DNA from: Nitrospira sp.
GTDB lineage: Bacteria > Nitrospirota > Nitrospiria > Nitrospirales > Nitrospiraceae
Assembly: GCA_015904075.1 (NCBI GenBank)
Contig: JABMDH010000063.1
Coordinates: 6,401-15,897 of the forward strand
Direction of reading: 5' to 3'
Length of the DNA stretch: 9,497 nt
Shown here: in pieces, positions 5,688-6,568 of the stretch
How positions within the stretch are numbered: position 1 is the first letter of the stretch
Layout: the number at the start of each line of letters is the position of its first letter
Position numbers and translations under genes: made by a program
Notes under the pieces: model-generated
The model's database searches: none
What the model was told of the DNA's origin: nothing
Seen by the model: only the letters and a program-made list of their open reading frames with translations

Positions 5688-6107
5688 CTAGAGTTCCTCA
5701 AATTTGATCTCGACGACCTCATATTCGACGACCTTGACCGGAGTTTTCACTTCAACGAAGTCTCCCACTCGTTTGCCGATTAATGCCCGTCCGACCGGTG
5801 ATTGGACGGAGATTTTGTTGAATTTCATATCGGCTTCGTCTTGGCCGACCAACGTATAATGCTTCTTCGCCTGTGACTCTTGTTCGATCACTGAAACCGT
5901 CGCGCCGAAGACAACTGTTTCCGTGGTTCGGCCCGTGATTTCGATGATACGAGCATCGGCCAATTTGCTTTGCAATTCGACAATGCGCGACTCGATGAAA
6001 CCCTGACGTTCCTTGGCCGCATCGTACTCGGCGTTTTCGCTCAGATCGCCATGGGCGCGCGCTTCGGCAATGGCTTCAATATTCTTCGCCCGCTCAACTT
6101 TGCGCAA
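5688..6107 (-). CDS. greA: Transcription elongation factor GreA, 5'-truncated
   Basis: GreA binds the RNA polymerase secondary channel and stimulates cleavage of backtracked transcripts. The open frame from TTG 6107 gives 139 residues. Clear homology starts slightly upstream at ELDRL (6119), equal to about E. coli GreA residue 17. The coiled-coil motif EARAHGDLSENAEYDAAKER keeps the acidic tip residues (D and E of GDLSENAEY) needed for cleavage. The C-terminal FKBP-like domain is complete: VFGATVSV, VGQDEADMKFNKISVQSPVGRALIGKRVGD, VVEYEVVEIKF. The first ~16 residues, with the native start and ribosome binding site, are replaced by carB sequence in a different frame. Translation could restart at TTG 6107 with a shortened first helix, but no good binding site is visible. 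Treat as a broken or misassembled gene whose coding core is intact. Confidence 0.85.
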   Translation of the reverse strand: MRKVERAKNIEAIAEARAHGDLSENAEYDAAKERQGFIESRIVELQSKLADARIIEITGRTTETVVFGATVSVIEQESQAKKHYTLVGQDEADMKFNKISVQSPVGRALIGKRVGDFVEVKTPVKVVEYEVVEIKFEEL

Positions 6108-6568
6108 GCGATCCAGTTCTGTGCCGTGCCGCTTTTGGGCACGCGCAAGCCGATCCGCTGCATTGCCAGCTTGAAGGCTTCCCGGTCCTCCGCCTTATGG
6201 ATCGCTTCGGCCGAGGCGCCGATGAGCCGGACACCGTATTTCTCCAACACGCCGCGTTTGACCAATCCCATGGTCGCGTTCAGCGCCGTTTGTCCCCCCA
6301 TCGTCGGCAACAAGGCATCGGGCCTCTCACGCTCGATCACGTTCTCGACGACATCCAGCGTAATCGGCTCCACATAGGTACGGTCCGCCATCTCCGGATC
6401 GGTCATGATCGTAGCTGGATTGCTGTTGATGAGGATGACCCGATACCCTTCCTCTTTGAGAGCTTTACATGCCTGTGTGCCTGAATAGTCGAATTCACAG
6501 GCCTGGCCGATAACAATCGGGCCGGACCCGATCATGAGAATGGAGCGGATGTCTGTGCGTTTTGGCAT
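6041..6568 (-). pseudogene. carB: Carbamoyl-phosphate synthase large subunit, N-terminal fragment only
   Basis: CarB makes carbamoyl phosphate from CarA-released ammonia, bicarbonate and ATP for arginine and pyrimidine synthesis; normal length is about 1,070 aa. Residues 1-149 align colinearly with E. coli CarB: MPKRTDIRSILMIGSGPIVI, GQACEFDYSGTQACKALKEE, LINSNPATIMTDPEMADRTY, LLPTMGGQTALN, AEDREAFKLAMQRIGLRVPKSG. This covers the pre-ATP-grasp domain and only the edge of the first ATP-grasp domain. From about 6125 the frame reads greA in the wrong frame and stops at 6041. Both ATP-grasp units, the oligomerisation domain and the allosteric domain are missing, so the product cannot function. 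The start is ATG 6568, with AGGA overlapping the stop of the M48 gene. Either a ~2.8-kb deletion or an assembly error. Confidence 0.92.

What the first reader, a model, noticed from the sequence alone, without database searches (positions are those of the whole stretch)
6105..6135. carB is cut after codon ~149 and joined out of frame to greA lacking its first ~16 codons
Seen: on the minus strand CarB homology holds to SGTA (6122), and GreA homology starts at ELD (6119) in another frame. About 2.8 kb of carB and the greA start are missing, while carA next door is intact. A cell without CarB would need arginine and pyrimidines from outside, so either carB exists elsewhere, the organism is reduced, or the contig is misjoined. 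The exact seam within 6119-6130 cannot be placed, since both parents are unknown.
Basis: partly seen in the sequence, partly recalled or inferred. Interest (0 to 1): 0.7.

Follow-up and report, generated by a model that had tools for sequence, protein, structure and literature searches.

The report
Broken carB-greA join in Nitrospira contig
In this piece of a Nitrospira genome two neighbouring genes have been cut and stuck together with about 2.9 kb missing, and the evidence points to a faulty contig more than to a bacterium that really lost an essential enzyme.

Summary
On the minus strand CarB codons 1-149 run to 6120 and join GreA codon 16 onward (6119-5688) out of frame. The closest relative, L002, has the same gene order with intact carB and greA; against it 2,894 bp are missing, and the parents share only CA at the seam. 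Of 66 loci carrying both genes, 65 have 3.19-3.52 kb between them; L018 has a different deletion. A public protein, P0001, matches all 149 residues and continues past the seam. The CarB and GreA remnants show no decay. The window holds a second gene-breaking seam: bioA is cut at 3604 behind about 100 nt without a convincing match in 77 genomes of the genus. Two recent-looking breaks favour a chimeric contig (0.65) over a real recent deletion (0.28); a two-base overlap does not fit a repeat-driven misjoin. No genome or reads are held for the window, so the choice stays open. Side finding: L018 may be a real loss of carbamoyl-phosphate synthase.

The parts
6120..6568 (-). carB 5' remnant: CarB residues 1-149 plus CA of codon 150; the frame runs on through greA sequence to a stop at 6041
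   Evidence: Pfam CPSase_L_D1; 1 of 149 residues differs from L002 CarB; 0 of 149 from P0001
6120..6121 (-). seam 1: carB joined to greA, 2-nt overlap (CA), 2,894 bp missing relative to L002
5688..6119 (-). greA remnant: GreA residues 16-158 and stop; first 15 codons missing, another frame than carB
   Evidence: Pfam GreA_GreB_N from profile position 14, and GreA_GreB; 2 of 143 residues differ from L002
6575..7603 (-). M48 family peptidase, open neighbour used to find the relatives
7611..8615 (-). S49 peptidase (sppA-like), open neighbour
8557..9495 (-). carA, last 312 codons and stop; 5' end outside the window
4792..5643 (-). SAM hydroxide adenosyltransferase (DUF62), open neighbour
3604..4119 (+). 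bioA-like class III aminotransferase 3' remnant; about the first 293 residues of the L002 ORF are missing
   Evidence: (Aminotran_3 profile positions 265-403); lepA-bioA spacing 333 bp here, at least 999 bp in 45 of 45 relatives with both
3500..3603 (+). seam 2 sliver: about 100 nt of unknown origin directly before the bioA remnant; left edge uncertain (one repeat match reaches 3511)
   Evidence: only partial matches of 20-29 nt within it in 77 genomes of the genus; none in phages, plasmids or PHROGs
3475..3497 (+). copy of a short dispersed Nitrospira repeat just before the sliver
   Evidence: query positions 101-123, several copies in some genomes

Best explanation
The carB-greA junction is most likely a false join in a chimeric contig (chimeric read or amplicon, or a scaffolding or gap-closing error) from a Nitrospira species whose chromosome carries intact carB and greA in the usual order. 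Shown: the join, the missing 2.9 kb, the parental order in relatives, a protein identical over the 149 residues that continues normally past the seam, undecayed carB and greA remnants, and a second gene-breaking seam in the same contig. Inferred: that P0001 is the same species and that no cell carries the join. If so it does nothing and arose during library preparation or assembly.
For: Two seams that each break a conserved gene lie 2.5 kb apart: carB-greA at 6120/6121 and bioA at 3603/3604, the latter behind about 100 nt without a convincing match in 77 genomes of the genus. Relatives lack both joins: 65 of 66 loci have 3.19-3.52 kb between carB start and GreA codon 16, the other (L018) a different deletion; 45 of 45 have at least 999 bp between lepA and the bioA mark against 333 bp here. 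CarB and GreA remnants are constrained: dN/dS to L002 0.018 and 0.025, no window-private residue, no change at columns invariant in the relatives. P0001 shares all 149 residues, including N76 (K in 18 and R in 1 of the 19 next-best listed), and continues SGTAHTRQEAVGIL. Losing CPSase would make an autotroph depend on outside arginine and pyrimidines (established pathway knowledge).
Against: A 2-nt overlap is far shorter than any assembly k-mer, so a repeat-driven graph misjoin does not explain this seam; a chimeric molecule or a scaffolding step must be assumed, and there are no reads to show it. In the MDA study (PMC1855051, passages read) 406 of 475 chimeras were inverted and only 11 of 475 were direct joins under 10 kb. 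carB is no clear hot spot of contig ends: 0.051 per kb against 0.049 in the next 3.3 kb. The bioA remnant's dN/dS of 0.174 is the second highest of the seven genes measured, though L002, not the window, holds most of the private changes (5 against 1). L018 suggests that carB can be lost for real. P0001 ends ten residues past the seam; no full-length CarB identical to the window over 149 residues is among the proteins listed (top 120 of about 8,000 scored in each); the nearest, P0241, P0243 and P0244, differ by 1 of 149.
Confidence: 0.65

Rival explanations
1. A real, very recent deletion in one strain: illegitimate recombination with 2-nt microhomology removed 2.9 kb, killing carB and truncating greA; the cell (or subpopulation) needs arginine and uracil from neighbours. 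Loss of both bioA and carB would fit a dependent lifestyle.
For: The 2-nt overlap is ordinary for illegitimate recombination and hard for a graph misjoin. Window and L002 are collinear outside the seams. L018 gives an independent carB lesion in the genus with signs of decay. The ORF beside bioA carries two in-frame stops.
Against: No decay in the carB and greA remnants; the stop-bearing ORF is found only in L002 among 80 loci and has no Pfam match, so it need not be a gene; the intact junction of P0001; a second seam with a sliver of unknown origin.
Confidence: 0.28
2. An old deletion in a lineage that has long lost CPSase (true pseudogenes).
For: Such a case may exist in L018: 6 private changes in 71 residues, 3 of them at the 44 columns invariant among the others, against 0 or 1 in 52 of the 54 sequences compared.
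Against: The window's carB remnant has 0 private changes and dN/dS 0.018 at dS 0.32: the gene was under full constraint until now.
Confidence: 0.03
3. A repeat-driven graph misjoin at an assembly-fragile carB.
For: Some relatives' contigs end inside carB (12 contig ends 30-3320 bp after the M48 match; the first 450 bp have 3 ends, 0.087 per kb); a dispersed repeat sits near seam 2.
Against: Over the whole of carB contig ends are no denser than in the next 3.3 kb; only 2 nt are shared at seam 1.
Confidence: 0.04

Closest known systems
Intact carB-greA locus of Nitrospira (L002, JALHPO010000001.1 bin.260; also Ca. N. defluvii FP929003.1 = L021)
   Same: L002: same order carA, sppA-like, M48, carB, greA, DUF62 gene, bioA (opposite strand), lepA, lepB; 89-94% nucleotide identity
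   Different: The window lacks 2,894 bp across carB-greA and about 0.9 kb between lepA and the bioA remnant
Chimeric DNA joins such as those of multiple displacement amplification (PMC1855051, passages read)
   Same: Join with short complementarity; 2-21 nt in over 70% of junctions there
   Different: Most MDA chimeras are inverted; this is a direct deletion-type join; whether MDA was used here is unknown
carB deletion in L018 (VGXB01000001.1, Nitrospira M_DeepCast_50m)
   Same: carB 5' part retained, about 3 kb missing, same locus
   Different: Other end points; in frame (about 71 codons joined to about the last seven residues of CarB), greA whole, carA in two frames, carB remnant decayed

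Membership tests
CarB (CPSase large subunit) | pre-ATP-grasp domain at the N terminus | tested here: met
   PF25596, E 9.3e-50, residues 7-124
CarB (CPSase large subunit) | both ATP-grasp halves, oligomerisation domain (PF02787) and C-terminal domain, about 1,090 residues | tested here: not met
   Only 149 CarB residues present; PF25596 is the one Pfam match of the 175-aa ORF
GreA | N- and C-terminal GreA/GreB domains in a whole protein of about 158 residues | tested here: not met
   Both domains match, but residues 1-15 are missing; L002 GreA and the 120 listed relatives are 158-159 residues
Chimeric contig | junction absent from relatives and from other copies of the species | tested here: met
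   (65 of 66 normal spacing, 1 different deletion), (seam 23-mer in 0 of 98 loci; P0001, apparently the same species, protein only)
Chimeric contig | clipped reads, depth change or discordant pairs at the seam | not testable with these tools
   no genome is held for the window and no tool gives reads
Pseudogene by old deletion | relaxed constraint in the remnant | tested here: not met
   carB and greA; bioA remnant dN/dS 0.174 but 1 window-private residue against 5 in L002
MDA chimera | inverted orientation of the joined segment (85% of cases) | tested here: not met
   both segments lie on one strand; frequency from passages of PMC1855051

The most novel reading that the evidence does not exclude
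Some Nitrospira lineages really lose carbamoyl-phosphate synthase. The window would be a just-made deletion and L018 an older one. Such cells would import arginine and pyrimidines, or take carbamoyl phosphate from another source, such as the oxalurate-type cluster (AllG with a carbamate-kinase-like gene) that L018's genome carries beside open ATCase/OTCase-family genes.
Probability: 0.1. Interest if true: 0.6.

Novelty: not a real feature. Interest (0 to 1): 0.15.

Why it matters
If the join is false, this record should not be used to claim an arginine and pyrimidine auxotroph or a CarB-GreA fusion, and its bioA break should be distrusted as well. If it were real, a chemolithoautotroph without CPSase would be a strong case of nutrient dependence among nitrifiers, and the L018 locus would be the better place to study it.

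Tried and rejected
Assembly-fragile carB: contig ends are not enriched over carB as a whole (12 ends, 0.051 per kb, against 10 ends, 0.049 per kb, in the next 3.3 kb). The first 450 bp have 3 ends (0.087 per kb), too few to judge. Rejected as a main cause.

Compensation by carbamate kinase as a general rule: TIGR00746 at E at most 1e-50 is in 25 of 175 family genomes, 18 of them over the curated cut-off. By comparing the tables by eye, it is in 3 of the 18 genomes without PF02787 (G001, G026, G092) and so in 22 of the 157 with it: no association. Completeness was not told, so absence of PF02787 is weak evidence of loss.

The bioA-side sliver (about 3500-3603): no match in phages, plasmids, PHROGs or, by exact 28-base pattern, viral contigs; within it only partial matches of 20-29 nt in 77 genomes of the genus. 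Origin unresolved. The seam-1 23-mer is in no viral contig either.

The ORF at 4128-4760 with two in-frame stops was considered as a sign of decay; it is seen only in L002 among 80 loci and has no Pfam match, so it is not used as evidence. A repeat search in 3300-3620 gave nothing.

Limits: one search kept the best 80 of 193 loci. Searches scored about 8,000 candidates each and listed 120. One search's sppA translation was out of frame and was corrected. In one search, 24 sequences not starting MP were dropped, leaving 54, the window included; L012 there (14 private changes) has unread residues and a broken frame. One search shows six of the loci. One search leaves out L018 and L002 as references and counts only columns where window and L002 differ; in it carA has 4 window-private changes against 1 in L002, and sppA 4 against 0. 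Papers: PMC1855051 and PMC12625717 were seen as passages; the other papers as listings only and are not used.

Full report
What is there. The window is a stretch of a Nitrospira chromosome; no whole genome is held for it. On the minus strand it reads carA (last 312 codons), an S49 peptidase, an M48 peptidase, carB, greA and a SAM hydroxide adenosyltransferase; then on the plus strand a bioA-like aminotransferase remnant; then lepA and lepB on the minus strand. The CarB frame is normal to residue 149 and then runs into greA sequence in the wrong frame; GreA homology starts at its residue 16 in another frame.

Parents and exact seam. The M48 protein found 193 loci in species genomes, of which the best 80 were kept; their titles name Nitrospira, Nitrospiraceae, Nitrospirae or Nitrospirota, except two titled uncultured Nitrosospira. 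The closest long one, L002, is 89-94% identical in DNA over the aligned pieces and has the same order with a 1,097-residue CarB and a 158-residue GreA four bases apart. Placing both flanks on the relatives puts the seam at 6120/6121: carB supplies sequence down to CA, and greA also has CA there in L002, so the overlap is two bases. Relative to L002 2,894 bp are missing. By my own arithmetic an overlap of two or more bases arises in about 16% of random joins, so it is unremarkable; it is also far below assembly k-mer sizes.

How unusual. Of the 80 loci, 66 hold both genes; in 65 the distance from carB start to GreA codon 16 is 3,194-3,521 bp, in L018 300 bp. In the other 14 the contig ends within 3.4 kb after the M48 match. 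In 79 genomes of the genus, 76 matched a 501-base query across the seam, but no listed row crosses it. The seam 23-mer is in none of the 98 loci. Of 175 family genomes 157 have PF02787, the CarB oligomerisation domain.

Is it decay? Not in carB or greA. Against L002 the carB remnant has 1 of 149 residue differences (dN/dS 0.018 at dS 0.32) and greA 2 of 143 (0.025). Compared with the other relatives, the window has no private change in carB or greA and one in the bioA remnant, where L002 has five; none is at a column invariant in the relatives. The bioA remnant's dN/dS of 0.174 is second only to M48 (0.209) among the seven genes measured, so its constraint is less clear. The carB break is either very recent or not biological.

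An intact junction. P0001, a 159-residue partial CarB from an NCBI Nitrospira MAG (contig 23,428 bases), equals the window over all 149 residues and continues SGTAHTRQEAVGIL. It shares N76; of the 19 next-best listed, 18 have K and one R. It ends ten residues past the seam, so it shows the intact junction and not a full gene. The nearest full-length CarBs listed (P0241, P0243, P0244) differ by one residue in 149.

A second seam. bioA homology begins abruptly at 3604, at residue 294 of the L002 ORF. Before it lie about 100 nt with only partial matches of 20-29 nt in 77 genomes of the genus, and before that a short repeat dispersed in Nitrospira genomes. The spacing from lepA to the bioA mark is 333 bp here; in the 45 relatives with both it is 999-1,250 bp in 44 and 3,505 bp in one. 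Two fresh breaks of conserved genes 2.5 kb apart are easier to explain by one faulty contig than by two separate recent losses. This is the main reason for preferring the chimera, and it is an inference.

Results against that reading. carB as a whole is not enriched for contig ends. A 2-nt overlap excludes the repeat-driven kind of assembly error, leaving chimeric molecules or scaffolding. In the MDA study that I read in passages (PMC1855051) only 11 of 475 chimeras were direct joins under 10 kb. And L018 suggests that carB can be lost for real.

L018. In VGXB01000001.1 (Nitrospira M_DeepCast_50m; that this is Lake Tanganyika is recalled) about 71 carB codons are joined in frame to about the last seven residues of CarB, greA is whole, and carA is in two frames. 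Its remnant has 6 private changes in 71 residues, three at the 44 columns invariant among the others; 52 of the 54 sequences compared have 0 or 1. Its genome G001 (about 2.0 Mb, completeness not told) has no PF02787 match and, apart from the carB remnant, only weak matches to CarB (31 bits or less), but has open ATCase/OTCase-family and argininosuccinate synthase genes. A neighbouring ORF, 640 residues in L050, is also internally deleted in L018, so assembly error is not excluded there either. G001 carries a carbamate-kinase-like gene (353.7 bits, just under the TIGR00746 cut-off of 358.25) beside AllG, a CoA-ligase-type ORF, Bmp, two permeases and an isochorismatase, like the oxalurate and triuret genes reported for comammox Nitrospira (PMC12625717, passages read); AllH was not looked for. 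L002's genome G002 has the kinase as well as an intact CarB, and the kinase does not track PF02787 absence across the family.

Verdict. A true sequence observation, most likely a contig artefact (0.65), with a real recent deletion as the main rival (0.28). The choice needs the reads.

Noticed in passing
window 3500-4119: Second seam: bioA-like aminotransferase lacks about its first 293 residues and is joined at 3603/3604 to about 100 nt of unknown origin.
   Followed up: partly
window 4128-4760: ORF next to bioA, homologous to a 211-residue ORF of L002, carries two in-frame stops; no Pfam match and found in no other of the 80 loci.
   Followed up: partly
L018 10993-11724: Independent in-frame carB deletion with decayed remnant, carA in two frames and whole greA; its genome has no PF02787 match but keeps ATCase/OTCase-family and argininosuccinate synthase genes.
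   Followed up: partly
L097 3637-13138 (genome G001): CoA-ligase-type ORF, AllG, carbamate-kinase-like gene, Bmp, two permeases, isochorismatase and an ABC ATPase: an oxalurate/biuret-type cluster in the genome without a PF02787 match.
   Followed up: partly
window 3388-3417 and 3475-3497: Short dispersed repeat present in several copies in some genomes of the genus.
   Followed up: no
L012 10190-10490: carB of L012 lacks about 150 bp around codons 57-107, with unread residues at the join.
   Followed up: no
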